Source: Zygnema cylindricum (taxonomy: Eukaryota > Streptophyta > Zygnematophyceae > Zygnematales > Zygnemataceae). Taken from it: a stretch of 64,000 nt of DNA. The stretch is from positions 202,811-266,810 of the forward strand of contig JBBHKE010001156.1 in NCBI GenBank assembly GCA_037447655.1. Direction: 5' to 3'. This document shows positions 4,962-64,000 of this stretch, one piece after another; positions within the stretch are counted from its first letter, which is position 1; every line of letters begins with the position of its first letter. The position numbers were made by a program, and so were the translations under genes. A model generated the notes under the pieces. That model did no database searches and was not told the DNA's origin. It worked only from the letters and a program-made list of their open reading frames with translations.

Positions 4962-5317
4962 AACATATGGTATCCGGAGAGGTTGCTACAGACCTTGATG
5001 ACCCGATTCTGATTTATTTCGGTTACAAGAGTCACGTGTCTTGAGATATTCTGCGATGTCCCGAGTCACGTTCGGCCAATAATACGCCCCAGCAACACGT
5101 GCAATTGTTTTATCTTGTCCAAATGTCCACTGAGCGGCTCGTCATGACTTATTTTAAGTATCGTGTGACGTAACTCTTAGTTTGTCGGGACATAAAGTCG
5201 AGTTTGCTAGCTCGGTCTGTACCTCCACATACTGTTGGCGGGTCGAACTAACAACTTCCGTTTAACCAGTTCTTTGAGTGCATCGTCTTCGTCATATGCG
5301 ACCTTAATCCTCTTTAG
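4962..5317 (-). pseudogene. Gypsy G1 region between RNase H and integrase core, degenerate
   Basis: This stretch should encode the integrase zinc-binding region and the RNase H to integrase linker. Short translated bits on the minus strand are compatible with that, but I could not recover a clean HHCC motif. No other gene is visible. Confidence 0.5.
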
Positions 5318-45291: not shown

Positions 45292-45306
45292 GGTTATGGG
45301 CCCACC
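45292..45306 (+). other. Primer-binding site of copia B1
   Basis: GGTTATGGGCCCACC, exact; the gag frame opens at its ATG (45296). Confidence 0.92.
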
Positions 45307-47022
45307 ATCTAGGGTGCCTATGTTCGATGGAACATACTTCACTTATTGGGAGATTACAATGGAGGGATTGCTTTTCGAGAAACACTTATGGGGAATTGTT
45401 TCGGGACAAGTGAGATGTCCGCCACATGGCTTTGGAGAAGCTTACTATGGTGAATCATCTAAGGCTGCCCAGAATATCAACCGAAGTTCAGATGCAACAG
45501 AAGGCGAAGGGAAAAACCTTGCCGTGGATGGGGAAATAGGGGAGAAGGTAAAAGGGACACCTATGGTGAAGGGAGCAAGGCTCTCAGCAATGGGACCACT
45601 TGTAGGGATTAAAACTGAAGAAAATGACAGAAAAATATGGGAATACAAAAACACTATAGCAAAACATCTCATACTTAGAAACGTGTCTAAGTCCATAGCT
45701 ATCACTCTTATAAACTTAACGAAGTTTTCAGAGATATGGGAAGCACTAAATCAGATTTATAAGAGTGAGACTATTCAGAAGCAACAATTAGTAAAACAGG
45801 AAATAGATGCCTATGTTTATAAAGGCGGTAGCATGATAGAGTTTTGCAATGATATTGCTGTGCTATATGTTGAGCATGAAAGTGCAGGATATGTAGAATC
45901 TGAGGAGAGGAAGATCAATACACTACTCATGAAACTCCCAGATGAGTACGAAATCATCATTTGTTGTATGTAGGCAATGGATGGCTTATCATGGACTTGG
46001 AGCTTTACCATGGGGAAAATTCTTGTGAGGGAAAGCACTTTGAAGCTTCGTAGGGGAAGTGAGAGTGTGAATGCATTTACAGCTAGTGGTGATTAGCGTA
46101 AGCGTGACGTGGGGAACGGCGGTGACGAGCGGAAGCGTGATAAGCGGAAGAAAGACAAAGGTGAACCTTATCGGAATTTTCGTGGAAAGAGAGGGAGAGG
46201 AAAAGAAAGGGGAGCTTTGAAAAATGGGGTTTGCTTCTTTTTTAGGGAGTCGGGTCACTATATAGAGGAGTGTCCTAGTTTGGAAGAAATTAAAAGTTGG
46301 AATGTTGATGAGGAGGAAGAAGGGGAAGAGGAGAACGAGGATGAAGATTTTTTGGAGCTTCTCCGCATTGGTAATATGGGGAAGAAAGAAAAGCACACAG
46401 AAATTCCACGAAAGCAACAGTGTGCTTTTGGAGGTATAAGGGAATTAAAGAGAGAGGAGAAAATTGAGGATAGTTTCATAGATATTTTAGAAATAGAAAA
46501 CTGGTCGGAAAGGGAGACTTCAACGGATTCCGAGGAAAGGGGAGAAGTAAATCTAAAGGGGGCTCTAAAAGATAGGGGAGGAGAGGAATATTTGATTAAA
46601 AGTATAGGGGAGGAGAATAATATTTGATTAAAAGTTTAGGGGAGGAGAAATTTTTTTTGGAAGTAAAAATAGAAAGTGATAGTGGAAAGAATTCCATGGG
46701 AGAGAGTGAGGTAAATGAGATAATTATCATGGATAAAAATATGAGTTCGGAAGATGTAGATTTCATGAGGAACATAGAGAGGACTAGTGACTTTTGGGAA
46801 TATTTGACGGGGGGTGGATTTGACATCACTACTTGGTGTGATGTTGCTTGTGAAGATGTGCCTGTAAAAAGGTTATCATCAGGTTATGTGTTGCAGATTG
46901 GGGATGGGGCTGACTGTTGGAAATGCAAAAGGGAAAGTGGATTTTGGTTGGATGAAAACGGGAGGAGGTGGATTAAATATTTGCTCCGGTTTATGAAAAG
47001 TGTCATGCAAAATAAAAAGTAA
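45296..47022 (+). pseudogene. Copia B1 gag with RNase H remnant
   Basis: The frame from 45296 gives MGPPSRVPMFDGTYFTYWEI, a gag body with KTEENDRKIWEYKNTIAKHL and EERKINTLLMKLPDEYEI, then stops (45971 and 46094) and, in the same frame to 46627, a knuckle in which the second Cys is Phe (CFFFRESGHYIEEC, about 46231-46272), followed by a Glu-rich stretch. After a frameshift, 46800-46920 reads FDITTWCDVACEDVPVKRLS and GYVLQIGDGADCW, which is the start of copia RNase H. Protease, integrase and RT are absent. Family B cannot move without help from another element. Confidence 0.88.
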
Positions 47023-47133
47023 GATCAACAAGATGAAATTATTTTTGGTCATCTAATACACTTTCTTAAATATAAAGGTATTTGCTTAAAGCTTCATGAA
47101 GGAAAAAGGAAAAATGAAATGAAAATTTATATA

Positions 47134-47296
<163 letters not shown>

Positions 47297-47328
47297 TTAG
47301 ATGGGAGTTGAAAGTAAAGTAGACTAGA

Positions 47329-47340
47329 AAATAAGGGGAG
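47329..47340 (+). other. Polypurine tract of copia B1
   Basis: AAATAAGGGGAG before TGTTGAAATT at 47341. Confidence 0.9.
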
Positions 47341-47362
47341 TGTTGAAATTTAAAGTATTTTC
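47341..47362 (+). repeat. First 22 bases of the B1 3' LTR
   Basis: TGTTGAAATTTAAAGTATTT then TC; the LTR resumes at 59654 with TTTCCTAGGTCTAGAG. The pentamers TTTTC (47358-47362) and TTTCC (59654-59658) are the target duplication of element C with one change. Confidence 0.9.
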
Positions 47363-48263
47363 TGTTGTTCTACAACCACAGTAGCAGGAGGAGAGCTTGA
47401 AGCAGTAGTAGTGGAAGTAGACATATAAAGCAGAAGCTAACAAGCACTATACTCAACAGCCAACTTCAAGATGTGATAGAATGCAACTCACTAATCTATG
47501 CAGACTCAAATTTTGCATAACAATAGTAAGCACAGTGTAGAATCACTCTACGAAGATTAAACTCAATTGATCTAGCCAACCATAAGATATTCACATTGCA
47601 TATTCACAAAAACTGCCTTAGTTGATTAATATCCCAAGACTTGGATAATCACAATTTGTCTAAGTCCCAAACTATATACTCACAGTGAGTATCTGCTAGT
47701 CATACTAATTTAAGTGACTGTACTACAGTACTATTATATGCTACGACAAAGTACTTAAACTGTACATACTGCTCTAAAAGTACTTCCAAAACCTAATTTT
47801 TCCTTTTCTCTAAATCTGAATAGTGTGACACTATTTTAAATTAGCTAAACTACAAAACCTTGTTTCCAAATAATTACAAATAGAAGGCCGCACATTAAAT
47901 GTTTCTGGCGCTTAGTCAGCAATGGTCCATAGCATTCGACCGACTGTTGTCGTATAGTACGAAGCACCTGATACCGTCCAAGTGTGCTTCGTCATTTGTG
48001 GTCCCTTCTAAATCGCGTCCGTCAATTTGATGTCAATCAACGACCTTCCTTGGCTGACCGTACCATACTTTTCCAGATATGCGGTTTGCATTCATTTCGT
48101 CCGATTTCATCAATCCGCTCGTTAATCTCCTAACACGTGTAACTGGTCATCGGCGCTACTGCGTGAAACCAGCAACACCCTTTTTCTGCCGATGCGTGTC
48201 CAACTGGCCGTACAGTACACTATCTTAGTCTTCTGTTACTATAACACTATTTGAGGTAAGTAT
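47363..48263 (-). repeat. 3' LTR of copia C, outer-flank part
   Basis: Matches 58668-59567 almost base for base (TGTTCTACAACCACAGTAGC at the start, TATTTGAGGTAAGTATT at the break). It continues at 51922 after the inserted element F. Confidence 0.93.
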
Positions 48264-48815
48264 TGTTGTTTTTAGAAAGCTTTAGTCCTCTTTATGCCTC
48301 AGCTGTGAGAGAGAGAGCTGTTCAGGACTTAAGCTATTTTTGGTTGAGTTCGGTTCAGTACTTACCGAAATTAGTGTGACAGTGAAGTTGGGAGTTCACG
48401 GTTCATTCACACTTGGGACACGTGTCGTCACTTGGGAGAATGCGTGAATATGTCCTCCGTGGACGTACGGAAATTCGGCAGGACCACTGGACTTCGTGAA
48501 GTCAATTCTACGGTGCCAAATCCTCTAATCGGCGGCTGTCAGCGGTCCGATTAGAGGATTTGGCACCGTAGAATTGACTTCACGAAGTCCAGTGGTCCTG
48601 CCGAATTTCCGTACGTCCACGGAGGACATATTCACGCATTCTCCCAAGTGACGACACGTGTCCCAAGTGTGAATGAACCGTGAACTCCCAACTTCACTGT
48701 CACACTAATTTCGGTAAGTACTGAACCGAACTCAACCAAAAATAGCTTAAGTCCTGAACAGCTCTCTCTCTCACAGCTGAGGCATAAAGAGGACTAAAGC
48801 TTTCTAAAAACAACA
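48264..48815. repeat. Perfect 269-bp inverted repeat of F LTR
   Basis: Arms 48264-48532 and 48547-48815, spacer CGGCTGTCAGCGGT. I see no mismatch between the arms. Each arm equals the first part of the F 3' LTR (from 51174). The spacer is the inverse of the next LTR bases, so the two LTR copies are joined at LTR positions about 269 and 283. Confidence 0.95.
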
Positions 48816-48996
48816 CTCCCCTAAAGCTTTAGACTCTGCTAGTCACTCAGTCCACATGCCTCTCTACAAAACTTCAATTTGGGAGCAGGTAAGGGTTTCG
48901 TCATCATATCAGCCACCATTTGCTCATCCGGTAAATAACTCAACTTCAAGACTTTTCCCATCACCTTTTCTCTTACAAAGTGAAGCTTTTCATTGT
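48816..48996 (-). pseudogene. Inverted copy of the F pol 3' end
   Basis: Reverse complement of about 50990-51173 (the end of RNase H, the stop codon and polypurine tract), with small differences near its inner end. It is joined to plus-strand integrase coding sequence at a shared GTGCTT. The reading frame that runs through it on the plus strand (from 48856) is a by-product. Confidence 0.9.
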
Positions 48997-51153
48997 GCTT
49001 CTTATATCAGAAATAGAGTGGAAACCCGGGCTGTTAGGGGTAAGACACCTTATGAAGTTTGGACAGGCAAAAAGCCAAATGTTAGTCATTTTAGAGTTTT
49101 TGGTAGCAAATGTTTTATCTTGGATAATCTTCCTAATTGGAAGCTTAGTCCAAAATCTGTACCTGGCGTCTTTTTAGGCTATGATGATGAATCTGCAGGT
49201 TATAGAGTGTATAATCCTCAGAGAGGATGTCTTCAAACAGCCAGGAATATTCAGATTAAAGAAGAAAGTCAATCTGTTGATGTTTTTAGCATGGATGCAG
49301 CTGAAAGGAAAGAGAAAATACAAGAGTATATCATTCTTGAGCAGGTACCTTTTACTCCATCCTCTTCTACTACTTCTACCTCTCTCCCAAATGCCTCTGG
49401 GCCGTCTAATACTCCTTCTGGAGCTGCTCCTTCTGTCGATGCTCCTCCGAATACACGCCTTGTGCGGCAATCTAAGGAACCAACCGTTCCCGCGTCAGAT
49501 TTTCCGGGGGGAAGAAGGCAAAGTAGCCGCCTTCGAGGCGACCGAGTTGAGAGTGCTTTTTCTGCAAGCACAGGGGAGCCGCTTACTATTCATGAAGCTT
49601 TTTCCGTTCCTGAAAAGGATCATTGGATCTCGGCTGCAAATGAAGAGATAAAGTCAATTATGGAAGCCCAAACTTGGGAACTTGTGGAGCTCCCACCGAA
49701 CAGGAAAGCTATCGGTTGTAAGTGGGTCTTCAAATTAAAATTGAATCCTGATAATACAATTGAGAGATATAAAGCTAGACTGGTTGCTAAGGGATTTAGC
49801 CAAAAGGAGGGAATTGACTATGAAGAGACCTTCTCTCCTGTGGTTCGCTTTCCTACTGTTAGAGTTTTGCTATCTCTTGCCGCAATAGAAGATATGGAAT
49901 TGCATCAGATGGATGTTAAGACAGCTTTCTTGCATGGTGATTTGGAGGAAGTAATTTATATGAAGCAGCCAGAGATGTATGCAGAAAAAGGGAAAGAAAA
50001 TCTGGTCTGTAAACTGTTGAAGTCCCTTTATGGTCTGAAACAGGCTCCGAGGCAATGGAACCTGAAATTAGATGAGTTTTTAACCAATCTAGGCTTTACC
50101 AGGATAAGTTCAGATCACTCAGTCTATGTAATGCAAGGTGATGATGGAGTGATTTATGTGGCAGTTTATGTAGATGATTTGCTATTAATTAGCAAATCCA
50201 TCAATGAGATTAATAAAATAAAATCAGCTTTGAATTCCCGGTTTGAAATGAAAGACATGGGTGAGGCTAAGTATATTCTAGGAATTCAAGTAGAAAGAGA
50301 CAGGAAACAGAAAATTATTTATTTAACTCAAAAGGAAGCAATCAAGAACATGTTAGAAAAGTTTGGCATGTCGGACGCAAAGGGGAGTGCCACTCCTATG
50401 GAATTCAGGCAGAAATTGGAAGGCACGGAAACGGATGGTGGTGTTTTGGTTGATGGTTTCTTAGATTCAGGGGAGGCAGATTCTATGTCCTCCATTCCTT
50501 ACAGGCAGATTGTCGGAAGCCTCATTTATTTCATGAATTGTACTCGTCCCGACATCGCAGCAGCGGTTGGAGCCTTAAGCCGAAGCCTTCAGAATCCAAG
50601 GAAATCAGACTATGAGGCAGCAAAGAGAGTTCTTCGTTATCTTGCAGGAACTCAAAATCTTAGACTCTCTCTCGGTGGAGAGGAAGTCAAAATTCATACA
50701 TGGAGCGATGCGAGCTACGGAGATATGCCGAGCCGACGCTCCACCACCGGATACATTTTGAAGATCGGAAGTGGAACTTGCTGCTGGAGCAGCAAACTTC
50801 AGAAGGTAACGGCTCAGTCTACCATGGAGGCTGAGTACATGGCTGCTAGCTCGGCAGTTAAAGAGTTACTTTGGGTAAAGTCTCTTCTCCAAGAGCTTCT
50901 CTTTATGCAATCTGGACCACAGATAGTGTGGTGTGATAATCAGGCAGCAATCGCTATTGCATCTAATCCCAGTCATCACTTTAAGAGTAAGCACATTGAT
51001 ATCAAGCTACACTTTGTAAGAGAAAAGGTGATGGGAAAAGTCTTGAAGTTGAGTTATTTACCGGATGAGCAAATGGTGGCTGATATGATGACGAAACCCT
51101 TACCTGCTCCCAAATTGAAGTTTTGTAGAGAGGCATGTGGACTGAGTGACTAG
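48997..51153 (+). CDS. Copia F pol: integrase tail, RT and RNase H, open
   Basis: Open without a stop to 51153, but without its own start because the element is rearranged; the ATG at 48856 lies in the inverted segment. It begins in integrase (SYIRNRVETRAVRGKTPYE, KPNVSHFRVFGSKCF), then a Ser/Pro-rich linker. RT is at about 49670-50290 (GCKWVFKLKLNPDN, DYEETFSPVVRFPTVRVLLS, KTAFLHGDLEEVIYMKQPE, catalytic YVDDLLLISKS near 50168). RNase H runs to the end (WSDASYGDMPSRRSTTGYIL, QSTMEAEYMAASSAVKELLW, CDNQAAIAIASNPSHHFKSK, MVADMMTKPLPAPKLKFC). Active-site residues I can check are present. Gag is absent, so it cannot form particles by itself. This is the most intact pol in the window, which agrees with a recent insertion. 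Confidence 0.93.
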   Translation, partial: ASYIRNRVETRAVRGKTPYEVWTGKKPNVSHFRVFGSKCFILDNLPNWKLSPKSVPGVFLGYDDESAGYRVYNPQRGCLQTARNIQIKEESQSVDVFSMDAAERKEKIQEYIILEQVPFTPSSSTTSTSLPNASGPSNTPSGAAPSVDAPPNTRLVRQSKEPTVPASDFPGGRRQSSRLRGDRVESAFSASTGEPLTIHEAFSVPEKDHWISAANEEIKSIMEAQTWELVELPPNRKAIGCKWVFKLKLNPDNTIERYKARLVAKGFSQKEGIDYEETFSPVVRFPTVRVLLSLAAIEDMELHQMDVKTAFLHGDLEEVIYMKQPEMYAEKGKENLVCKLLKSLYGLKQAPRQWNLKLDEFLTNLGFTRISSDHSVYVMQGDDGVIYVAVYVDDLLLISKSINEINKIKSALNSRFEMKDMGEAKYILGIQVERDRKQKIIYLTQKEAIKNMLEKFGMSDAKGSATPMEFRQKLEGTETDGGVLVDGFLDSGEADSMSSIPYRQIVGSLIYFMNCTRPDIAAAVGALSRSLQNPRKSDYEAAKRVLRYLAGTQNLRLSLGGEEVKIHTWSDASYGDMPSRRSTTGYILKIGSGTCCWSSKLQKVTAQSTMEAEYMAASSAVKELLWVKSLLQELLFMQSGPQIVWCDNQAAIAIASNPSHHFKSKHIDIKLHFVREKVMGKVLKLSYLPDEQMVADMMTKPLPAPKLKFCREACGLSD

Positions 51154-51173
51154 CAGAGTCTAAAGCTTTAGGG

Positions 51174-51916
51174 GAGTGTTGTTTTTAGAAAGCTTTAGTC
51201 CTCTTTATGCCTCAGCTGTGAGAGAGAGAGCTGTTCAGGACTTAAGCTATTTTTGGTTGAGTTCGGTTCAGTACTTACCGAAATTAGTGTGACAGTGAAG
51301 TTGGGAGTTCACGGTTCATTCACACTTGGGACACGTGTCGTCACTTGGGAGAATGCGTGAATATGTCCTCCGTGGACGTACGGAAATTCGGCAGGACCAC
51401 TGGACTTCGTGAAGTCAATTCTACGGTGCCAAATCCTCTAATCGGACCGCTGACAGCCGCCGCCAACAAATAGTGACGAGGCGTGACTAGATCATTATCA
51501 CTTTACGTTGTCTGAACTTCGGTGTAAATATTTGTGATAGAATGTTAGATGTACGGCTGGAATGCCTCCGTACAGCTTAGTGTAGTTTCGGTGTATAAAA
51601 GTAGGACTTAGTGAATTTGATTTTTAGGAACAAATGATATGAAAAATGTACACTCAGTTTTATGTAATTTCATTTCTACATATCTCACAGATTTGTGAGC
51701 GGAATTCATTGCAATTTTGTGTGTGTGTTCCTTTGTAAGTTATCTACATTGTGGCAAATTTTTAGGACATTTGATGCATTTTTTTGAAAGTTATAGTCTG
51801 TCAAAGTTTCTGATCAGCCATCGGTATTTGTGGAAGCTTCCTCTCTTGATTTGTTCTACGATGACTACTGCTGCATCTTCTTCATCTTCAGTACCAACAC
51901 TTGTCTCAGAACAACA
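51174..51916 (+). repeat. 3' LTR of copia F
   Basis: TGTTGTTTTTAGAAAGC to GAACAACA, 743 bases, after the purine tract TTTAGGGGAG. It has GACACGTGTC (about 51330). No tRNA-like cassette. Confidence 0.93.
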
Positions 51917-51921
51917 AGTAT

Positions 51922-52007
51922 TACAGGTTTTCATTTCCCAAAATATTCTAAGTCCTTAATTCCTCCTCACAGCTTTATCTACTGAGTAAAGGTTTCCAAT
52001 TTCAACA
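51922..52007 (-). repeat. 3' LTR of copia C, inner part
   Basis: Matches 59568-59653 (TACA.GTTTTCATTTCCCAAA, ending TTTCCAATTTCAACA). With 47363-48263 it sums to about the 986 bases of the other LTR. Confidence 0.9.
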
Positions 52008-53014
52008 CTCCCCAATATCTTTAGACGCAGTCACTCACTCAACCCAATAGCCTTTGCATTGTCATCATATCCCACAAAGATCTCAGGTAAGCCCTTTGCT
52101 TCCATTTTCTATCTAGTCTGCGGTGTGTCTAAGACAAAACATTTGCTGCCAAATACTCTAAAGTGACTAACATCCGGTTTCATGCCTATCCATAGTTCAT
52201 AAGGTGTAGTCTTAACCGATCTAGATGCAACTCTGTTTTTAATATAGACCGCACAATTGAGTGCTTTAGCCCATAATTTCAAATTTAAACCTTTGTCTGC
52301 AAGCATGGACCTAGCTCTTTCTATGACATTTCTATTTAGTCGTTCAAAAACAACATTCTGTTCCGGTGTGTACAGAACTGTCAAGTTATGACTGATACCT
52401 TCCGGGAGGAGAAACTGTTCGAACTCCTTTGAAGTTTATTCTCCTCCGTTGTCCGATTTTAGCGCCAAGATCGGAACTCCATGCAGCTTTTCTACCCATG
52501 CCTTGTAGAGCTTGAATTGTGTAAACATTTCACTCTTATGCTGCAAGAAGTAGACTCTTGTGAACCTCGAATAGTAATCACTGAACATAACCATATAGTG
52601 GACACCTCTAGCTGATGGAACTTGTGATGGACCGAGAACATCCGAGTGGATAAGTTGTAGAACTTTGTCCGATCTCTGGTCAGATGGTTGTGGAAAAGGT
52701 AAAATGTGGATCTTTCCAAGTGAGCATCCATCACATGATTTCATAGGTTGAGAAGTAAGAGAAACACCTTCAATTTCCTGAATTCACCATCTTTTGTAAA
52801 CTATCATAATTGATATGGCCTTATCTCTTATGCCATAGTTCATTAACACATGATACACTGGAATAGAGAACATCATTTTCTTTGTATTCAGCCATATCCA
52901 TCCTATACATCTTGCTTCCATCTCTAGTTTTTGTCTCTGCAACTTTACCTAGCTTGCTAACAACCTGTCTGCCTCTTTAGAGGATTACATCAAAGCGTTT
53001 GCTCTCTACCAAAG
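52008..53014 (-). pseudogene. Copia C integrase; RT and RNase H deleted
   Basis: From 53014: end of protease region (VESKRFDVIL), pre-integrase ELWHKR with GHINYDSLQKMV (about 52850-52795), zinc site SCDGCSLGKIHILPFPQPSD (52735-52680), core LIHSDVLGPSQVPSA, SDYYSRFTRVYFLQHKSE and LKSDNGGE (52665-52436), YTPEQNVVFERLNRNVIERA and RVASRSVKTTPYELWIGMKP (52384-52180). The final part reads IFVGYDDNAKA and jumps directly to GLSE and a stop, the last residues of copia RNase H, next to the polypurine tract. So the middle of pol has been removed. B2 sits at its right border. Confidence 0.9.
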
Positions 53015-53209
53015 TGTTGATATTTGAGTATTTTATAGGTCTATTTTAGGATAGGAAAATAGCGGAGGCAGTCTGCCTCTAACTTCTTCTCCAAGCCCCC
53101 ACACTTGTTGTAGTCACTGGAGGCTGAAGAGGGAGCTAGAGCCATGGTTGCCTAAGCTGTCTAGAGAGACAGGTAGTAGAATCTGAGTAGATTTACCAAA
53201 AAGAATGAC

Positions 53210-53290
53210 GGACCGAGGATTTGATCCTGGTACCTGCCGTCCGTCATACTAGCCGTTAGCTTTGTCCGTTTAGTCTAGGACTTGTGCTAA
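53210..53290 (-). other. tRNA-like cassette in B2 5' LTR
   Basis: Minus strand A-box-like TAGACTAAACGG (53266-53277), B-box-like GGATCAAATCC (53217-53227). Confidence 0.68.
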
Positions 53291-53604
53291 GATGTATAGG
53301 GTTTGATATGTATTTAAACACATACACGTAGGTTTTCCCATTTAATTAGATTACTGTCTATAGGATATAAAAACAGTTGTACTATTAGAACCGGACGAAA
53401 CAAATAGTACAGACATTTGTTTCGACGGTTCGTATTTAATACTTATATCAATCAAACGGCCGTGGTTAGCGTCGGTCTCGCAGAAAGGACAATTAGGCAG
53501 TTTTCGGACTTCGCCACTTCGGATGACACGTGGTAACAACGTACAGAATTATGGAATTTACGGAACGGAAGAAAACAAATCCGAAAGTGACAAATGTCGC
53601 ACTA

Positions 53605-53870
53605 TGGCGACATCGTACAATGTACGTACAGAAAGTACCTCGACACTTGTACTTTCTTGTACGGTACCATTTTTCTAACGCGACATGACCTGGCGCCACG
53701 TGGAGAGATAAGATTTGGAGGTAGGAATTCCGGAGATTATAAGAGCGAATCCGGATAAGACATGTGTTGACTTTTTAGCCATGGTGTACAATGACTGTAC
53801 AAAAGGTACACCGACATCTGTACCTTTATGTACTAATACAGTACTGCGATTGGTTCGTACCTCAGTACTA
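53605..53870 (+). promoter_or_regulatory. GTAC clusters upstream of the B2 TATA box
   Basis: Seven GTAC tetramers in about 65 bases (53605-53670) and eight in about 95 bases (53780-53875). The second includes the palindrome AAAGGTACA-8-TGTACCTTT (53802-53827). Such density is far above the expectation of one per 256 bases. It is repeated in the 3' LTR (about 56790-57050). Confidence 0.55.
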
Positions 53871-53941
53871 GAGGGTTTAGAGAGGGGTTTAGGACTTATA
53901 ATATTTCTAGTAGGTAGCTGCCTCTCCTAGAGAGCACCTTG

Positions 53942-53948
53942 TATAAAT
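53942..53948 (+). promoter_or_regulatory. TATA box of B2 5' LTR
   Basis: TATAAAT in CCTTGTATAAATGGC; conserved in the 3' LTR at 57120-57126 and similar in D at 17316. Confidence 0.6.
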
Positions 53949-54296
53949 GGCAAACTTTGGCGAGCCATAACCATAAACTCAGTTGACCATTTTCAGTGAT
54001 TCTTTTTGTTGCGGACTCAAAGGAGCTCAAGCTACAGAAGGGTGTAGTTGGTTAGAGTCTTTGCCTGCCTAGGTGGCTGCATTTCTTAGGGAAAGTCAAA
54101 GTGGGTGAATGTGTCCAAACCTCATATTCTAACTTTGCATTCTGTAGTGGAACTGAGCACACAGAAAGTCTTATTTCACAGAGGTGATGCTGTAATGGGG
54201 TTCTGATTATCAAGGGGTTAATAATTTGGGTTTATATAAACTTGGAGTCGGCACTATCTAGATTAGCTTCATTTGATCTGCGAATTCTGTGTGGCA

Positions 54297-56174
54297 ATGG
54301 AGCCCATAGAATTTCTGGTTATGGGCCCACCATCTAGGGTGCCTATGTTCGATGGAACAGACTTCACTTATTGGGAGTTTACAATGGAGGGATTGCTTTT
54401 TGAGAAGCACTTATGGGGAATTGTTTCGGGACAAGTGAGGTGTCCACCAGCGGGCTTTGGAGGAGCTCACTATGGAGAATCATCTGGGGCTGCCCAGAAA
54501 ACCAACCGGAGTTCAGATGCAACCGAAGGTGAAGGAAAAATCATTACGGTGAATGGGGATATAGGGGAGAAAGATAAAGGGACACCTATGGTGAGGGGAG
54601 CTAGGCTCTCGGCTACAATTCCACTTGTGGGGGTTATAACTGAACTAAAAACTGAAGAAAATAATAGGAATATTTGGGAATATAAAAACACTATAGTAAA
54701 ACATCTCATACTTAGATATGTGTCTAAGTCCATAGCTATCACTCTTTTAAGTCTAATCAAGTCTTCAGAGATATGGGAAGCACTAATTCAGATTTATAAG
54801 AGTGAGACTATACAGAGGCAGCAGTTAGTAAAACAAGAAATAGAGGCCTATGCTTATAAAGGCGGTAGCATGATAGAGTTTTGCAGTGATATTGCTGCAT
54901 TATAACTTGAGCTTTCTAGTGCAAGATATGTAGAATCTGAGGAGAGAAAGATTAATACACTAATCATGAAACTCCCAGATGAGTACAAAGACATCATTTA
55001 CCGTATGCAGGGAATGGATGTCTCCTCGTGGACTTGGAGCATCACCATGGGGATAATACTTGTGAGGGAAAGCACCTTAGAGCTTCGTAGGGGAAGTGAC
55101 AGGGTGACTGCATTTACAGCTGGTAGTTATTGGCGAAAACGTGATGTGAGGAACAGCGGCGACGAGCGGAAGCGTGATGAGAGGAAGAAAGACAAAGGTA
55201 AACCTTATCGAAACTTCGGTGGAAAGAGAGGGAGAAGAAAAGAAAGGGGAGCTTTGGAAAAAGGGGTTTGCTTCTTTTGTAGAGAACTAGGTCACCATAT
55301 GGAGGAGTGTCCTCGTTTGGAAGAACTTAGAAGTTGGGGTGTGAATGAGGAGGAAGAAGGGGAAGAGAAGAAAGAGGATGAAGAAATCTTGGAGCTTCTT
55401 CACATCGGTAGAATGGAGAAGAGAGAAAAGTACACAAAAATTCCACCAAGGCAACAGTCTGCTTTTGGAGGTATAAGGGAAGTAAAAAGAGAGGAGGTAC
55501 TTGAGGATGTCGAGGAGTGTAAAGTGTATGACTTAGAAATGAGAAAGTCAGATCTAGGATCCATAAGTGAAAACGGGAAAAAAAAAATTAATGAGGATAA
55601 TTTTATAGGTATTTTGGAATTAGAAAACTGGTCGGAAAGGGAAACTTCAACGGATTCCGAGGAAAAGGGAGAAGTGAAACTCGAAGGGGTTTTAAAGGAT
55701 ATGGTAGAAGAGGAATATCTAATGAAAGGTTTAGGGGAGGAGAAATATTTATTGGGAATAAATTTAGAAAGTGAGAGTGAGGAAAGTTTAATTTTTGGGG
55801 GTAATGGGTTTGACATCACTAAAAAGAGTGATGGCATTTATAAAGGTGCGCCTGTAAAAGGGTTAGCATCTGCGTGTGTATTGCAGATTGGAGATGGGGC
55901 TGGCTGTTTGAATTTCAAGAGGGAAATTAGATTTAGTGTGGATGGAAAAGAGACGAGGTGGATAAAATGTTGGCTTCGATTTATGAAAAGTGGGATGCTA
56001 AATAAAATATGTGGTGTAATTATTATTCCGGTTTATCAAATGTTCTATTTTAAATACGAGAATATTTTATTAAAGTTTCATGAAAAGAAAAGGAAAAGGA
56101 AAAAGAAAAAGGGTGGAGAGGGTGTGTTTGTTTGTTTGATTTTTTTGGCTATGTGGGAGTCGAAAAAAAAATAG
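54297..56174 (+). pseudogene. Copia B2 gag fused to an RNase H remnant, one stop
   Basis: One frame of about 625 codons with a single TAA at 54903-54905. It opens MEPIEFLVMGPPSRVPMFDG, continues FTYWEFTMEGLLFEKHLWGI, then the gag body (ENNRNIWEYKNTIVKHLILR, EERKINTLIMKLPDEYKDI). A basic stretch precedes a proper CCHC knuckle, CFFCRELGHHMEEC (about 55270-55311). After it comes an acidic Glu-rich region of about 150 residues, then FDITKKSDGIYKGAPVKGLA and VLQIGDGAGC (55810-55905), a relic of RNase H lacking its active site, and a Lys-rich tail. Gag alone can build particles in this superfamily, so the element may be carried by pol from relatives. Confidence 0.9.
54317..54331 (+). other. Primer-binding site of copia B2
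   Basis: GGTTATGGGCCCACC, exact; its ATG (54321) is in frame with the LTR ATG (54297) and with gag. Confidence 0.93.
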
Positions 56175-56180
56175 ACTAGA

Positions 56181-56192
56181 AAATAAGGGGAG
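56181..56192 (+). other. Polypurine tract of copia B2
   Basis: AAATAAGGGGAG before TGTTGATATATG at 56193. Confidence 0.92.
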
Positions 56193-57494
56193 TGTTGATA
56201 TATGAGTATTTTCTAGGTCTATTTTAGGATATGAAAATAGCAGAGGCAGTCTGCCTCTAACTTCTTCTCCAAGCCCTTACACTTGTTGTAGTCACTGGAG
56301 GCTGAAAAGGGAGCTAGAGCCATGGCTGCCTAAGCTGTCTACAGAGACGGGTAGTAGAATCTGAGTAGATTTACCAAAAGGAATGACGGACCCAGGATTT
56401 GATCCAGGTACTTGCCGTCCGTTATAGTAGCCGTTAGCTTTGTCCGTTTAGTCTAAGACTTGTGCTAAGGTGTATAGGGTTTGATATGTATTTAAACACA
56501 TACACGTATGTTTTCCCATTTAACTAGATTACGGTCTATAAGACATAGAAACAGTTGTACTATTAGTACCGGACGAAACAAATAGTACGGACATTTGTTT
56601 CGACGGTTCGTATTTAATACCTATATCAATCGGACGGCCGTGGTTAGCGCTGGTCTCGCAGAAATGACAATTTGGCGGTTTTCGCACTCCGCCACTCTGG
56701 ATGTCACGTGGCAACAACGTACGGGATTACGGAATTTCCGGAACGGAAGAAAACAAATCCGGAAGTGACAAATGTCGCACTATGGTGACATCGTAGAATG
56801 TACGTACAAAACGTACTCCGACACTTGTACTTTCTTGTACGGTACCATTTTTCTGACGCGGCATGACCAGGCGCCACGTGGAGAGATAAGATTTGGAGGT
56901 AAGAATTCTGGAGATTATAAAAGCGAATCCGGATAAGACATGTGTTGATTTTTTAGCCATGTCGTACGATGACCGTACAAAAGGTACACCGACATCTGTA
57001 CCTTTATGTACTATTTTGTAATGCGATTGGTCCGTACCTCAGTACTAGAGGGTTTAGAGAGGGGTTTAGGACTTAAAAATATTTCTGGTAGATAGCTGCC
57101 TCTCCCAAAGAGCACCTTGTATAAATGGCAAACTTTTGCCAGCCATAACCATCAACTAAATTGACCAAATTCAGTGATTCTTTTTGCTGCCTACTCACGG
57201 AATTCCAGGCTACAGAGAGGTGTAGTCGGTTAGAGTGTTTGCCTGCCAGGGTGGCTGCATTTTTCAAGGAAATTCAAAGTGGGTGAATGTGTCCAAATCT
57301 CATATTCTAACTTTGCATTCTGTGGTGGAACAAAGCACACAAAAACTCTTATTTCATAGGGGTGGAGCTTTAATGGGGTTTTGATTGTCAAGGGGTCAAT
57401 CATTTGGGTTTATATAAACTTGGAGTAGGCACTATCTGGATTAGCTTCTTTTGATCTGCAAATTTTGTGTGGCAATGGAGCCCATAGAATTTCA
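56193..57494 (+). repeat. 3' LTR of copia B2
   Basis: TGTTGATATATGAG to GAATTTCA, 1302 bases, the same length as the 5' LTR with scattered substitutions, implying some age. Confidence 0.96.
56388..56470 (-). other. tRNA-like cassette in B2 3' LTR
   Basis: Minus strand A-box-like block at 56443-56455 and B-box-like GGATCAAATCC (56395-56405). Confidence 0.67.
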
Positions 57495-57499
57495 CAAAG

Positions 57500-58655
57500 A
57501 AGTAGAAAATATATTCTTTTTGAACTCAGGTACATATAACACATTGTGGAGAGTTCTTTCTACCCACTTTTCCCCCACATCTACCATTAAAGATACATCA
57601 CCCTGTGCTGAAGTTTGCTCACTCATGCCGCAGGCATAGTAGATGTCCTTGGGAGGTGTCACCTTGAGGTTGGAAAAACTAGATTTGTTCCAACACATGT
57701 GTGCCGAAGCTCTTGTATCCATGATCCATCCTGTATCTCTCTGACCTTCCATAGCTGCCACCATTGCAAATAATTCTGCTTCTTCACCTTCAGTGTAAGA
57801 CAAGGAATCATCTTCTTCAGTTGCAGAACTTGAGAAGAGAGCAGTTCCCCAAGAAGAGTTCCCAGAAAAGCCCTTATGATATAGGCTTTGCTGCCAGCCT
57901 GGACGATATAGTCCTATTTCATTTGCCTTTTTTAGCTTTGAACAATAGCTGCATCCATGTCTATTTTTAGAGCAGTAAAAACAAGTAGTAGCCTGTCTAT
58001 TTGGTCTATTGTTGTACTGATTCACACTCTGACTCATATCCTCATTTCTGTTTTTATTAAGTAAAGTTCTCTTGTCAAAATTTGTGTTCAAAGCTTGTAC
58101 CTTTCTCTCTTCATGAAGTGTTTTAGTAGTTGCTTCTTCTTCTAAGATCAGATTGTATACTAACTGAAAAGTCCAGCTAGATTTATCATGAGTTTTCAGC
58201 TGGACAAACACTCCTTTTATATTACTAGGGAGTCCCCTAACAAGTAAAGCTGCCTGCTGGAACTCAGAAAATGAGCCACCAGCAGACGAATGTGCATCAA
58301 TAAGAGCACGCAAGTTATCACAATATTCCACCATACTCCCCCCGGAGTATTTATAGTCCCAGAATTGTCCAGCCATCAGAAAGTCCTACGGACATTAGAT
58401 TTCTCAAAAGCAATTTTTAGTGATTCCCAGATTTCTTTTGCTTTCTTCATTTTTAGCCGAGATATGACCAAATTCTCGGAGATGCACAAAATCAGATTGT
58501 TTCGTGCCAGTGAGTGTTTCTTTGCCCAACTCGCATCTGTTTTACTTAAAGTACCATCTAAGACCTCGAATAGATCTGCAGTTTCAAATGTGGATTCAAC
58601 CATCGCCGCCTAATATGCATACTTTTGGCCATTGAATATGGGAATTTTTGATGAA
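57500..58655 (-). pseudogene. Copia C gag and protease start
   Basis: The frame opens at the primer-site ATG with MGLSSKIPIFNGQKYAY, then a stop and a second start (MVESTFETADLFEVL, 58603). The gag body uses 58603-58376 and 58376-57500 (SWAKKHSLARNNLILCI, EFQQAALLVRGLPSNIKGVF). The knuckle CFYCSKNRHGCSYC (about 57990-57949) fits CX2CX4HX4C. Protease reads GWIMDTRASAHMC (about 57735-57697): the Gly of the D-T/S-G triad is Arg, so the enzyme would be inactive. It ends at the CAAAG duplication of B2 and resumes at 53014. Confidence 0.88.
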
Positions 58656-58667
58656 AGGCCCATAACC
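58653..58667 (-). other. Primer-binding site of copia C, partly conserved
   Basis: Minus strand GGTTATGGGCC followed by TTTC: the first 11 bases match the iMet anticodon-arm site. It borders the LTR end and again supplies the gag ATG, although this LTR is unrelated to those of A, B, D and E. Confidence 0.78.
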
Positions 58668-59653
58668 GGTTGTTCTACAACCACAGTAGCATGAGGAGAG
58701 CCCGAAGCAGTAGTAGTGGAAGTAGACATTTAAAGCAAAAGCTAACAAGCACCCTACTCAACAGCCAATTTCAAGATGTGATAGAATGCAACTCAGTGAT
58801 CTATGCAAACTCAAATTCTGCATAACAGTTGTAAGCACAGTGTAGAATCACTCTACAAAGATTCAACTCAATTGATCTAGCCAACCATAAGATATTCACA
58901 CTACAGATTCACAAAAACTGCCTTAGTTGATTAATATCCCAAGACTTGGATAATCACAATTTGTCTAAGTCCTAAACTATATACTCACAGTGAGTATCTG
59001 CTGGTCATACTAATTTAACTGACTGTACTACAGTACTGTTCTATGCTACAAGAAAGTACTAAAACGGTAATTACTATTCTAGGAGTACTTCCAAAACCTA
59101 ATTTTTCCTTTTCTCTAAATCTGAATAGTGTGACACTATTTTAAATTAGCTACACTACAAAACCTTGTTCCCAGATATTTACAAATAGAAGGCCGTACAA
59201 TAAATGTTCCTGGCGCTTAGTCAGCAGTGGTCCATAGCATTAGGCTAACTGTTGTCGTGTAGTATGACGCACGTGATACCGTCCAAGTGTGCTTCGTCAT
59301 TTGTGGTCCCTTCTAAATCGCGTCTGTCAATTCGATGTCAATCAACGGCCCTTCTTGGCTGACCGTACCATACTTTCCCAGATATGCGGTTTGCACTATT
59401 TCGTCCGATTTCATCAATCCGCTCGCTAATCTCCCTACACGTGTAACATGTCATTGGCGCTACTCCATGAAACCAACAACACCCTTTTCCTGCAGACGCA
59501 TGTTCAATTGGCCGTACAGTACACTATCTTAGTCTTCTGTTATTATAACACTATTTGAGGTAAGTATTACAAGTTCTCATTTCCCAAAATATTCGAAGTC
59601 CTTAATTCCTCCACACAGCTCTATCTATTGAGTAAAGATTTCCAATTTCAACA
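58668..59653 (-). repeat. 5' LTR of copia C (minus)
   Basis: On the minus strand TGTTGAAATTGG at 59653 to GTAGAACAACC at 58668. Matches the split 3' LTR. No tRNA-like cassette. Confidence 0.93.
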
Positions 59654-60815
59654 TTTCCTAGGTCTAGAGATTGTAAAATAAAAGGCAAAGAGGAGACACT
59701 AACAGCCTGCCTTTAACTGTTCACTCAAGTCCCCACACTTGTCGCAGTCACTGAAGACTTGAGGAGGAGTTAGATCCATGGCTGCCTGTGCTATCCAAAG
59801 AGGACAGGAAGGCAAATTTATTGTTACCTAAAAGATTAAGATATACCCAAGATTTGATCCGGATACTCGCAGTCTGCCAAACTAGCCGTTAGCTTATCCG
59901 TTTAGTCTAAGACTAGTGTTAAATGTTTTAGGGTTTGATATTTATATAAAGACTCACACATATACTAATTCATTCAACTCAATTTTTATTTGGGATGCAT
60001 AGATTTAGTTAATTAGAGTACGGAGGACACTACGGAGAAGAAACATATAACGCGCTTTTTGTTTCGATAGTGAAACAAATACCGGCAAGTATTTATGACG
60101 ACTACGATTGAAATATAGTTTTGATCGGACGGCCGCGAATGATGTCGAGATCGCAAAAGAGAATCGCGGAGGTTTGTGGTCATTGCCACACAAGATGACA
60201 CGTGGCACAATGACATTGGATCGTAGCAACTCCGAAGATTACGAGAACAAATCCAGATATGACATGTGTCGACATTTTGGCCATGTCGTACGATTGCCGT
60301 ACACAAAGTACACCGGCACCTATACTTTTATGTACGACACAGTAATTTTATTGGTGTCGTACGTCAATAGATAGAGTTTTAGAGAGAGATAAGACTTATA
60401 AAATTTAGTAGGTAGTAGCCTCTCTCCGAGAGAGCTCTTGAAAAAAAGGTCATCTTTGACCATTCATAACTATCAATTTACTTGACCATTTTCAGTGATT
60501 CTTTTTGCTACGTACTCACAGGAGTCCACGCAACACACGGGTGTAGTCGGTCAAAGTTTTTACCTGCTAGGGCGGCTGCATTTCTAAGGGAAATTCAAAG
60601 TGGGTGAATGTGTCCAAATCTCATATTCTAACTTTGCATTTTGTGGTGGAATTGATCACACAGAAAGTCTTATTTCACCGGGGTGAAGCTATAATGGGTT
60701 TTTGATTGTCAAGGGGTCAGTCATTTGGGTTTATATCAACTTGTAGTCAACACTATCTAGATCAGCTTCTTTTGGATCTGCTATTTCTGTGGGCAATGGA
60801 GCACACGGAGTTTCA
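59654..60815 (+). repeat. Remainder of the B1 3' LTR
   Basis: TTTCCTAGGTCTAGAG to CGGAGTTTCA. Parallel to 44136-45291 block by block. Ends at the CTCAA duplication. Confidence 0.93.
59846..59926 (-). other. tRNA-like cassette in B1 3' LTR
   Basis: Minus strand A-box-like TAGACTAAACGGATAAGC and B-box-like GGATCAAATCT (about 59850-59860). Confidence 0.65.
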
Positions 60816-60820
60816 CTCAA
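60816..60820. other. Target-site duplication of copia B1 (right)
   Basis: CTCAA, identical to 44109-44113. With one copy removed, the minus-strand frame of gypsy G2 runs on from AVIE into LGKMDK without a shift. Confidence 0.93.
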
Positions 60821-61090
60821 TTACCGCTTAGGCTTTCGGTGGTTGCCCCCAGCATGTGATATCAAATTCTAGTCCCACTTGTGGGTCCACTTTCCCCTTG
60901 TCTACTAGAATGCTATTGGTGACAACTTCCGCTAAGTTGTCCCTTTTCTGAACCACTGCTCCCCCCCACTGGAGAAATACTCGGGTGTGGAATGTGAATT
61001 TTTCTCTTTGCCCTCACCCCCTCAAGCTACAAAGTCGCTTGCATTGCCAACAATTTAGGAGCTTGAAGGTATGTCATTTGAGATTTTGGG
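60821..61090 (-). pseudogene. Gypsy G2 linker between methyltransferase and RT
   Basis: One minus-strand frame reads KFTFHTRVFLQWGGAVVQKR, SILVDKGKVDPQVGLEFD and CWGQPPKA, then a stop and AVIE up to the insertion point. I recognise no domain. Its place directly before the RT run-in makes it a linker of the same polyprotein. Confidence 0.6.
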
Positions 61091-61099
61091 GACTAGAGA

Positions 61100-62194
61100 C
61101 TAGAAAATGTAAGAGCATGTTTTATCAACCATGTGATGGCATTCAAATCTTGGTGCTGCCATATTAAGCTGCACCTCCGAAGGTCTGAAATATATGGTGC
61201 AGCTGTGGTTTCCGGATCCAATCCCATGGCTAGCTCTCGTTCTGCAATTGTTGGTGTCCTCTAGGTTTACGTTGTATCCTCGAAGATCATTCCCGCAGCT
61301 CCTTTCAGATATGCGTGGCTGTGAGGAAAAGAAACCAACGTATGAAGGGCTCCGCGTGGAATTTTTGGCTGGTTGCACCTGAAGAATGGGAAACGGTCGG
61401 CTTTTGTCACTAGTGTTGCCATTCGCCCCTTTTCGAGGATCTGCTGCACAAAATTTTGAGGGTCAAGGATCTGCTTCTCCAAGATTTTTTTCAAGACGGG
61501 AAGCGGGATTATATTAGTCCAGTAAGCTCTAACTCTTTGTTCCTAGGATCCCATTGCGATGCATCAAAGACCAATGGAGCCCCTAAAATCTTTGTAACAT
61601 GATTCCAGCTCTCGGTCACTTGTTTTTTTCAATCATCTCTCGGGTGAACATTTTCCAAAATGTACCCCACCGGCGTATTTTGGTGTTGTTGTACCCATGA
61701 GATTAACTGCACCATTATTAAAAATGTTTTACTCCTCAGGTCCCTATGCCCTTTTCCTTTTCCGACGAGAAAGTATCCTTGACATGGCCACCGTGCCACT
61801 ACCAGATCTATTCTTCCCAAGCTGGCCAGGTGACGCGTCATGATGTTATCCACATTCTCGGGAGACTCAGGTGAGCTTTGGAAATTGCGGACACTGGAAG
61901 TTGTTGAGGATATAGGTGGTGGAGTTGTTGGAGGCGGTGTTTGCTAACAACTTCTGTTTCGCGTGATATTTCGACGGCTACATAGGATTCCACTTGGTAT
62001 CCTGCTTTCAAAACAACTTTCAAATCATAGCTGATTCCAGATAATAACGATAAGATCCGGAGTCTTGAATTGGGAATCTTCAATGACATCACTTGTCGCT
62101 TGAATTTCTCGTTGTCGGATATGGTTCTTAAAACCTCACACCGGAGGTCAGAAACTGTTACCGTTAGTGATAACTCTGAGAATTTCTGATCCAC
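61100..62194 (-). pseudogene. C5 cytosine DNA methyltransferase inside gypsy G2
   Basis: Motifs appear in canonical order on the minus strand. Motif I RILSLLSGISYDLKVVLKAG (about 62063-62000; the usual second Gly is Ser), motif II SYVAVEIS (about 61990-61970), IDLVVARWPCQGYF with the catalytic Cys of PCQ at 61779-61787, DLRS a little later, motif VI YILENV (ENV at 61647-61655), motif VIII region DASQWDPRNKELELTGLI (about 61566-61513), then LVTKADRFPFF and LVSFPHSHAYLKGAAGMI (61430-61290), and a motif X-like PTIAERELAMGLDPETTA (about 61250-61195). Plant DRM enzymes have a permuted motif order; this one does not. At least three frameshifts and a stop (61629) make it a pseudogene. Cytosine methylation of DNA would be the ancestral activity. 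Confidence 0.88.
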
Positions 62195-62890
62195 TGCCCG
62201 CTAAAGTTTCGTGATTTGTAATCATCTGTCATTGTATTCCTCTTCCCACCGCTTACAAATACGGAATTGCTAAATCTCTGCGGCTATATCTGTTGAGCTG
62301 TCAAAGAGTTTAGTGGGAGAGGATGTTGCATATACAAGGTAATAGCCGGACATAAGAGCATTTTGTCTTTCTACGATTCTATAAATCTAAAGAAACCACC
62401 ACCTTGGTCTTTTTGGGATCTTCAAGGTCCCTAAAAGTGAACTGCTCCTTCCACACACTCAATCCCTTATTCAGCCGGGTCCACGTTGCCATCCCCAACA
62501 GAATTTCAAACTGCTTACCTTGTACCACCAAGAAAAGAAGTTGAATCCGGATAAGTTGTCCCGCGTCATCCGAAAATTCAATCTCTAAGGCCTTTATAAT
62601 TCGATGGACTGGCTCCCTTCCGCTGCTGACGGTACTCAGTCAGATGTCGCTTGGGCCGATTTTTGGCACGAGCTCTAGTGGCATCTGCTGTAAAGCAGAG
62701 GTGGTGATCAGATTTGGTAGCGCTTGGTACCGACCACTATATCTTGATATCCTCCGTAGCCGTTAAGCTTGAAATTGTCGGTCTGGTTCAGGATGAGAGC
62801 CATCGATAACGCCTTGTAATCCCTATCCATTATAGGGGTTTTGGGTTCCGAGGAAAAAAAGGCGGCTTTGGGCTAATTTCCCAAAGCTAC
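62195..62890 (-). pseudogene. Gypsy G2 retropepsin-like region
   Basis: A minus-strand segment near 62700-62400 reads LITTSALQQMPLELVPKIGP, REPVHRIIKALEIEFSDDAG, LLFLVVQGKQFEILLGMATW and LSVWKEQFTFRDL, the shape of the second half of a retroviral-type aspartic protease (F.VV...F.ILLGM). The catalytic D-T/S-G triad is not readable; the stretch just before (VVGTKRYQ, near 62730) is where it should be. Frames change at 62706, 62640 and 62360. Sits between gag-like sequence and methyltransferase. 62195-62400 has no readable protein. Confidence 0.5.
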
Positions 62891-64000
62891 GTTTTTCCTT
62901 TCCAGATGAATTTCCTCTCCTTCTGCCTGAATAAGAGCTTATTCGAGCAGATTATGAGAAGAGGCCAAAGTCTTCACGTGGGTGAGGGCGTACGGCATTA
63001 GGTGCCTTACCAGCATGACAGCCGGTTTGGAGGAAGGGGGTTGGGACTCGGGCGTCTCCTTGTATGTTTCGTCATCTTCAACATCAAAATCTGCAGTCGG
63101 AGGGGTGCCAAAGGTTATTATCCGGGCGTTCGGCCAGGTATTTCTCAAACTATTCTTGATCATTTTGCTTATCAAGGTTCTCCTTTGCCAATTGTTTCTG
63201 TTAATCCGCCTGAAAGTGTTCAAAACCCGGAGGCAATTTTTTTTCACATTCCCATTTTTTGTATTTTTTCACCCCTACATTCCAAGCTCTGGACATAAAG
63301 GTTCGGGCGTGGTGAGCCTTTGGAGGTTCGAGATCCCAACCCATAACATCATCATAATCTCCACCCACCGTGGCTTCCTCTTCAAGCTCCGCCAGCTTTT
63401 GCAATAGCTCATGTTTCTTCCTTTGAAGTTTTCTGAGTTGCCGTCAAAGTAGGTGTCTGGGAGGAGGATCCTAAATGCAGGACGGCCAATTCCGGTGCCA
63501 TCGCAACCAATTGCTGGCTCTGTTGCTGGATTATATTTTCCTTGGTCAGCGGGGCCAGAGCTAATAGGGCTCGTTCCAGTTCCCCCATGGTGTGACACCC
63601 TCAGGGTAAAGGACCAGGAGGGGGAGCGGATTCATTATAGTTTTCCTACCATTGGTGAACAAATCATACTACATCATCTCCTTAGGGACCCCATTTTTTC
63701 AGAAACATTGCCCTAATTTATGCCCCATAAAACCAGAAGCTTCACATTTTGAGCCTTTCGGTGGTATATTTACTTATGATTTCGTTAGATATTTTTGCAT
63801 CATCAAACTTGGGAAGTTTTTTTTGCAACAGCTGAGATTGAGACATTTTAGTTTTTTCGCCTTGCGGCGTTGGGCGATAGTTATCCTTGGTCACTAAGGG
63901 TTTCTCTCCCCCCTTTCTCCTTTGATCCGTTCCTGCTGCTTCTGAGTCCTCTCAGCACGTTATTTCTCAAGTTCTTTATGTTTTAGAGCAAGGTGCAGTT
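62891..64000 (-). pseudogene. Gypsy G2 gag-like region, unrecognised, cut by window edge
   Basis: Minus-strand pieces are strongly charged: LHLALKHKELEK and AERTQKQQERIKGERGERN (63998-63910), KLAELEEEATVGGDYDDVMG with GVKKYKKWECEKKLPPGFEH (63400-63215), and ITFGTPPTADFDVEDDETYK with PESQPPSSKPAVMLVRHLMP (63135-62985). Some could form coiled coils. I find no zinc knuckle and no clear capsid signature, so gag is assigned by position upstream of protease only. Several frame changes. The element start lies beyond 64000. Confidence 0.5.

What the first reader, a model, noticed from the sequence alone, without database searches (positions are those of the whole stretch)
60816..62194. Gypsy retrotransposon that captured a cytosine DNA methyltransferase between protease and RT
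Seen: C5-methyltransferase motifs I, II, IV (PCQ), VI (ENV), VIII and X in canonical order on the minus strand, followed after a linker by gypsy RT, once the copia stack at 44114-60815 (exact CTCAA duplication) is removed. Known: methyltransferase capture by retrotransposons has been reported in dinoflagellates and a charophyte alga; to my knowledge it is not a described feature of land-plant gypsy elements. Inference: the element may once have methylated its own cDNA or the host genome, as silencing or protective self-marking. The non-permuted motif order argues against derivation from plant DRM.
Basis: partly seen in the sequence, partly recalled or inferred. Interest (0 to 1): 0.92.

Follow-up and report, generated by a model that had tools for sequence, protein, structure and literature searches.

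The report
DNA-methylating-enzyme gene inside gypsy retrotransposons
The window holds a decayed copy of a large family of jumping genes that carry their own DNA-methylating enzyme, a rare kind first described in a green alga and here found with a very young copy, a likely leaky stop signal that sets the enzyme's dose, and relatives in a liverwort.

Summary
Window 61099-62068 (minus) encodes a frame-broken, unpermuted cytosine methyltransferase between gypsy protease and RT; a 16.7-kb copia stack (44114-60815, CTCAA duplication) splits the element. The domain belongs to the family: at least 150 scored places in this genome, many in long open frames; 17 of 18 sampled RT copies carry it upstream. 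It is DNMT3-type by profile and fold and under purifying selection. Four of 8 examined loci show complete A-coding-B-A-B repeats, the layout published for KnitGypsy-Dnmt3 of the alga Klebsormidium, so the kind is known. New: an in-frame UAG between protease and methyltransferase in some subfamilies (18 of 20 loci; 16 of 20 exactly UAG CAA UUC), and in a relative elsewhere UAG CAA UCA, the tobamovirus readthrough motif, between methyltransferase and RT; a C-terminal PHD finger; a copy with 931-bp repeats 100% identical; relatives in Closterium and Marchantia; and a second architecture (enzyme between RNase H and integrase) that forms the other side of a 98/98 tree split. The host looks like a streptophyte, perhaps Zygnema; a land plant is not shown. 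What the enzyme methylates, and readthrough itself, are untested.

The parts
63684..63992 (-). gag C-terminal remnant (continues beyond the window into L027:2-1555)
   Evidence: tblastn with gag frame of L009
62469..62809 (-). aspartic protease
   Evidence: tblastn 75-79% identity to the L009 protease; Pfam Asp_protease_2 on L009 is 22.3 bits, just under the cut-off 24.3
62270..62272 (-). in-frame UAG (followed by CAA UUC); UAG also in 17 of 19 other examined loci
61099..62068 (-). C5-cytosine methyltransferase domain, DNMT3-type, frame-broken
   Evidence: open relatives
60816..61098 (-). linker between methyltransferase and RT, first half
   Evidence: collinear with L009 (alignment reaches 60954)
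44114..60815 (.). nested copia insertion, not part of the element
   Evidence: TG...CA ends and CTCAA duplication
44109..44113 (.). target-site duplication CTCAA of the insert, one copy (other at 60816-60820)
43317..43805 (-). reverse transcriptase
   Evidence: Pfam RVT_1 1.1e-21 on a window piece; tblastn 78%
42727..43124 (-). RNase H
   Evidence: Pfam RT_RNaseH_2 8.9e-26
42008..42366 (-). integrase, cut off at about 42008 by another copia insertion
   Evidence: LTR match of L027 to 42010

Best explanation
The sequence is a dead copy of an abundant gypsy-type retrotransposon family whose Pol carries a DNMT3-type cytosine methyltransferase between protease and RT, passed on with the element and kept by selection. 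Shown by sequence: domain order, split direct repeats A-coding-B-A-B, a conserved in-frame UAG before the methyltransferase in several subfamilies, a C-terminal PHD finger, many copies and one with identical repeats. Inferred: a small share of ribosomes reads the UAG through, so methyltransferase-RT-integrase-PHD is made in a minority as a Gag-Pol-like product and packed with the RNA; the PHD finger guides or tethers integration to marked histones, as chromodomains do in chromoviruses; the methyltransferase acts on the newly made cDNA or the insertion site, giving the new copy methylation from the start and so damping harm to the host or steering which silencing pathway finds it.
Against: No methylation, expression or transposition data here. 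In the same paper the Klebsormidium enzyme gave no methylation in yeast (called inconclusive there, as human DNMT3B failed too). Subfamily B has WECQ for WPCQ at the catalytic loop in 5 of 5 aligned domains, as have P0005 and Closterium P0043 and P0060, so catalysis cannot be assumed for these. CpG decay in the copies is mild and not clearly above non-CG change. The methyltransferase is under weaker constraint than RT (medians 0.26 against 0.08 in A). One A2 pair has dN/dS 1.39 at dS 0.007, and A pairs reach 0.78. The second codon after UAG ends in C in this family, one letter off the tobamovirus consensus, and subfamily B has no stop. Two of 20 loci have UAA.
Confidence: 0.6

Rival explanations
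1. The methyltransferase is kept for a non-catalytic or RNA-directed role: it binds the element's nucleic acid in the particle or methylates RNA, and DNA methylation of new copies comes from the host.
For: WECQ variant in 5 of 5 aligned subfamily-B domains and in P0005 and Closterium proteins; KnitGypsy and SymbioLINE enzymes showed no activity in yeast (PMC5890265, passage); mild CpG signal.
Against: Nucleophile Cys, motif VI Glu and motif VIII Arg invariant across subfamilies and other organisms; best solved relatives are the DNA enzymes DNMT3A/3B, DNMT2 far behind (32-33 against 96 bits).
Confidence: 0.22
2. The in-frame UAG is not a leaky stop but a dead end: the second frame is started internally, or from a spliced or subgenomic RNA.
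For: No expression data; the motif in this family is UUC, not YYA, in the second codon; a 3' RNA structure was not tested.
Against: Stop position and the following CAA are shared by subfamilies only about half alike in protein; frames on both sides are the same; an element from another organism has the exact UAG CARYYA at a different junction.
Confidence: 0.2
3. Private capture: a host methyltransferase gene fell into this one gypsy copy and is unrelated to its replication.
For: None beyond the broken single copy in the window.
Against: 17 of 18 RT copies have it; purifying selection; same order in Klebsormidium, Closterium and metagenome Pol proteins.
Confidence: 0.01
4. Two independent captures: the protease-MT-RT group and the RNaseH-MT-integrase group each took a DNMT3 gene, rather than one capture followed by a move within Pol.
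For: Clean split of the MTase tree by position, 22 against 27 rows, 98/98; in the fuller tree 27 rows, 100/96, with no protease-MT-RT row among them.
Against: RT tree shows the same split only weakly (85/72); members of both groups share a PHD finger after integrase; no host DNMT3 could be placed between them.
Confidence: 0.4

Closest known systems
KnitGypsy-Dnmt3 of Klebsormidium nitens (de Mendoza et al. 2018, PMC5890265)
   Same: Gypsy domains, unpermuted DNMT3-type methyltransferase in Pol, DIRS-like A-coding-B-A-B repeats (their legend to Fig. 4c), purifying selection; K. nitens protein KFL_009030040 (P0053) has the order MT-RT-RNase H-integrase and falls on the same side of the position split
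   Different: Here: conserved UAG before the methyltransferase in several subfamilies, PHD finger after integrase (not found in the partial P0053, and the word is absent from the paper's main text), at least 150 copies, a very young copy, a WECQ subfamily, another host
SymbioDIRS-Dnmt3 of dinoflagellates (PMC5890265)
   Same: Retrotransposon with a DNMT3-type domain in Pol and split direct repeats; activity on CG shown in yeast by the authors
   Different: DIRS-type RT and tyrosine recombinase; here gypsy RT and a DDE integrase (rve)
Plant chromoviruses (gypsy with chromodomain; recalled)
   Same: A histone-reading domain after integrase could serve the same purpose
   Different: PHD finger instead of a chromodomain; a methyltransferase; split repeats
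Tobamovirus UAG CAR YYA readthrough (PMC3542737)
   Same: UAG CAA at the junction; L052 fits the motif exactly
   Different: Window family has UUC in the second codon; readthrough itself untested

Membership tests
KnitGypsy-Dnmt3-type elements | Unpermuted DNMT3-family methyltransferase in Pol | tested here: met
KnitGypsy-Dnmt3-type elements | Gypsy RT, RNase H and DDE integrase | tested here: met
   RVT_1, RT_RNaseH, Integrase_H2C2, rve over cut-off in L009 and L019 pieces
KnitGypsy-Dnmt3-type elements | Split direct repeats A-coding-B-A-B | tested here: met
   Complete in 4 of 8 loci (L009/10 with an extra duplicated piece, L015/16, L019/20, L023/24); B-A-B without a 5' A found in L021/22; A pair only in L017/18 and L025/26; rearranged in L011/12. 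L013/14 was fetched but not examined; not visible in the window copy
KnitGypsy-Dnmt3-type elements | Methyltransferase under purifying selection | tested here: met
KnitGypsy-Dnmt3-type elements | Common descent with the K. nitens element | tested here: inconclusive
   Same side of the MTase split (98/98) and of the RT split (85/72, not starred); equating P0053 with the published element is mine, by species and domains
SymbioDIRS-Dnmt3 | Tyrosine recombinase | tested here: not met
   rve integrase in the place expected
Plant DRM methyltransferases | Permuted motif order | tested here: not met
   Motif I before IV, VI, VIII, X (motif names recalled)
Chromoviruses | Chromodomain after integrase | tested here: not met
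   Pfam scan of the pieces at E 0.01 lists PHD (6.1e-11 in L020; 0.00037, under cut-off, in L010) and no chromodomain
UAG CARYYA readthrough signals | UAG followed by CAR YYA | tested here: inconclusive
   L052 UAG CAA UCA fits; window family UAG CAA UUC, last letter differs, exact in 16 of 20 loci
UAG CARYYA readthrough signals | Measured readthrough | not testable with these tools
   needs a reporter assay

The most novel reading that the evidence does not exclude
A single old lineage of DNMT3-armed, PHD-bearing, split-repeat gypsy elements has persisted across streptophytes, from Klebsormidium and Closterium to the liverwort Marchantia, and tunes the dose of its methyltransferase by moving one leaky UAG: before the enzyme (low dose, with Pol) in the window's family, after it (high dose, with Gag) in L052 and perhaps Marchantia, and no stop at all in subfamily B; the enzyme writes methylation on the element's own new copies.
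Probability: 0.4. Interest if true: 0.82.

Novelty: new variant of a known kind. Interest (0 to 1): 0.62.

Why it matters
Transposons are normally the targets of DNA methylation. A family that keeps its own DNMT3-type methyltransferase under selection, with a very young copy and related proteins in a standard laboratory plant (Marchantia), makes it possible to ask by experiment why an element would methylate DNA, and whether elements shape host methylomes. The arrangement of the stop codon offers a natural comparison of dose: enzyme with Gag, enzyme with Pol, or one fused frame.

Tried and rejected
Chance resemblance: rejected by shuffles and family data. Private capture: rejected. Bacterial or viral source: a scan of 84,980 prokaryote genomes confirmed 4 loci; the only strong one is L052 (43% over residues 65-387), a contig of a cyanobacterial bin with gag-protease-MTase-stop-RT-RNase H-integrase-PHD and best read as eukaryotic contamination; the other three are 28-33% over 108-146 residues. 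IMG/VR: a window piece confirmed none of 42 candidates; the profile gave 7 loci, six at 28-36% over 107-140 residues and one at 61% over 28 residues. Reassigned UAG: unlikely, as a subfamily-B frame runs 2395 residues without a stop. Ordinary LTR element: rejected for the copies with B-A-B repeats. A 4-bp duplication TTGG flanks the youngest copy, TGTC...GACA; of the other two loci with both outer ends readable (L015/16, L023/24) neither shows a clear one, so integrase-type insertion rests on one case. CpG decay as a sign of methylation: inconclusive. Host DNMT3 gene for rooting: the 150 scored of 548 candidate matches to a DNMT3A fragment include many known element copies and none was recognised as a host gene, though they were not examined one by one; the one DUF3444 match is a DnaJ gene; so trees are unrooted. 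Tree tests are discarded: the groups left out fragment rows of the same clade, and two RT rows were badly cut; one search replaces them. DNMT1, CMT and DNMT5 chains did not appear in the profile search at E 0.1, which excludes nothing by itself. Host name: 18S searches did not complete, and the one rbcL request was not repeated.

Full report
Observation. The window's minus strand carries, in order, a gag remnant, protease, an in-frame UAG, a C5-cytosine methyltransferase, a linker, and after a nested copia stack the RT, RNase H and integrase of one gypsy-type element. The copy is collinear with an uninterrupted relative, L009, at 67.9% nucleotide identity over protease-MTase and 73.5% over RT-integrase. 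The methyltransferase is at 62068-61099 in three blocks of different frame; 100 dinucleotide shuffles stay at or below 22.3 bits against 181.

Family. The genome holding the window (352.8 Mb, 2689 contigs) gave 123 scored matches to Pfam DNA_methylase out of 782 candidates, many in open frames of 500-2395 residues, 150 scored matches to the family's RT out of 3527 candidates and 150 to a DNMT3A fragment out of 548; these overlapping, capped lists are lower bounds. Of 18 RT copies picked by hand along the list of 150 (about ranks 2 to 101), 17 have the methyltransferase in the stretch 0.7-1.7 kb upstream, one of them only a short piece. By tblastn the fetched copies fall into groups: A (L009-like, 85-100%), a 69% group (L039, L040), A2 and its kin (L017, L030, L032, L033, L003, L036; about 51-64%), a decayed L031 (38%), and B (L019-like, 67-100% among themselves, about 38-42% to A).

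Anatomy. Pfam scans of pieces give, for L019/L020, zf-CCHC, aspartyl protease, DNA_methylase, RVT_1, RNase H, Integrase_H2C2, rve and PHD in one frame; for L009/L010 protease, then a separate frame with DNA_methylase, RVT_1, RNase H, integrase and PHD. The CCHC, protease and L010 PHD matches are just under Pfam's cut-offs; PHD in L020 (42.6 bits) and in L052 (39.9 bits) is well over. Direct repeats are not plain LTRs: L019/L020 has A (931 bp, 100% identical), coding, B (about 243 bp, 99.6%), A, B; the same layout is complete in 4 of 8 loci examined and partial or rearranged in the other four. The youngest copy runs TGTC...GACA, has TTGG on both sides, and the inner B-A junction reads GACA-GC-TGTC, as if the two ends had been joined. 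De Mendoza et al. (PMC5890265; part 1 of 7 of the text, section 9 and passages seen) describe this repeat layout for KnitGypsy-Dnmt3.

The stop. In 20 loci outside group B (window included; picked mostly from copies with open frames, so not a random sample) the codon between the protease and methyltransferase frames is TAG in 18 and TAA in 2, never sense; TAG CAA TTC is exact in 16. Other stops differ from copy to copy. L052, from a cyanobacterial bin, has a first frame with protease and MTase (CCHC and gag read by eye; its 5' end is cut by the contig), then TAG CAA TCA, then RT-RNase H-integrase-PHD in the same frame; no terminal repeats were seen on this contig. UAG CAR YYA is the consensus of tobamovirus readthrough (PMC3542737, one passage). 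I infer programmed readthrough; it was not measured.

Relatives. Three protein searches gave 17, 44 and 10 matches, partly the same proteins. Named ones are Marchantia polymorpha (P0022, P0025, P0032, P0036), Closterium NIES-53 and NIES-54 (P0043, P0060) and Klebsormidium nitens (P0053); the rest are mostly metagenome proteins. No RT was found in the 4 Marchantia proteins, and Pfam confirms only the methyltransferase in P0022 (protease and zinc-knuckle motifs there are read by eye). Two architectures occur: MT before RT, and MT between RNase H and integrase. For the position tree 19 of 68 domains, of unknown position, were dropped. Among the 49 left, 22 (15 with RNase H before the MT, 7 fragments with integrase right after it) are separated from 27 (24 of the first kind, own copies included, and 3 from Marchantia placed by eye) with support 98/98; the RT tree of 22 rows shows the same split, 10 against 12, at 85/72, not significant. 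In the fuller tree of 67 domains a clade of 27 at 100/96 holds the second kind and no row of the first. No host DNMT3 could be added, so one capture with a move inside Pol and two captures both remain open.

Host. The only DUF3444 match in the genome (2 candidates) lies in a gene whose upstream frame has a DnaJ domain; that DnaJ-DUF3444 genes mark the plant lineage is my recollection. Assembly size and contig number (352.8 Mb, 2689) are near those of Zygnema cf. cylindricum SAG 698-1a_XF (359.8 Mb, 3587 scaffolds; copia 29.8%; PMC11096116, section 6 and passages). This is a guess, not an identification.

Print record. A search for the published element names and DNMT-retrotransposon phrases found only PMC5890265. 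Searches joining DNMT3 or retrotransposon terms with charophytes, bryophytes, gymnosperms, Marchantia or zygnematophyte genera listed no report of such elements in Zygnematophyceae or Marchantia; I saw listings only (12 of 69 and 12 of 895 in the last two), apart from passages of PMC12344493 and PMC6453930. PMC12344493 repeats the streptophyte and dinoflagellate cases. The library is partial, so absence there is weak.

Verdict. Real, and of a known but rare kind; the new points are the placement of the likely leaky stop, the PHD finger, the size and youth of the family, the relatives in Closterium and Marchantia, and the second architecture.

Noticed in passing
window 35765-37571 (+): Frames resembling a Helitron Rep/helicase (named from memory, not scanned), followed at 37568 by a copia-like frame on the minus strand.
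   Followed up: no
window 4656-6552 (-): A second, distant gypsy element (RT 36%, RNase H 30%, integrase 24% to the family studied); whether it carries a methyltransferase was not examined.
   Followed up: no
window 47100-47330: Long TA repeat inside the copia stack, seen as (YI)n frames on both strands.
   Followed up: no
L052 (CADCWO010000201.1): A eukaryotic-looking gypsy-DNMT-PHD element in a contig filed under an uncultured Synechococcales genome: probable contamination of a reference bin.
   Followed up: partly
P0030, P0033 and 13 further proteins: Pol proteins with the methyltransferase after RNase H; in 13 of these 15 a PHD match follows the integrase. From metagenomes and EukProt; hosts unknown.
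   Followed up: partly
P0061: A 1608-residue protein with RT-like motifs, a DNMT domain and a PF05869 call, perhaps a DIRS-type element of the dinoflagellate kind (from memory).
   Followed up: no
L025/L026: Flanks of 2517 bp repeated at 99.2% outside the element's own repeats: a larger duplication or nested element.
   Followed up: no
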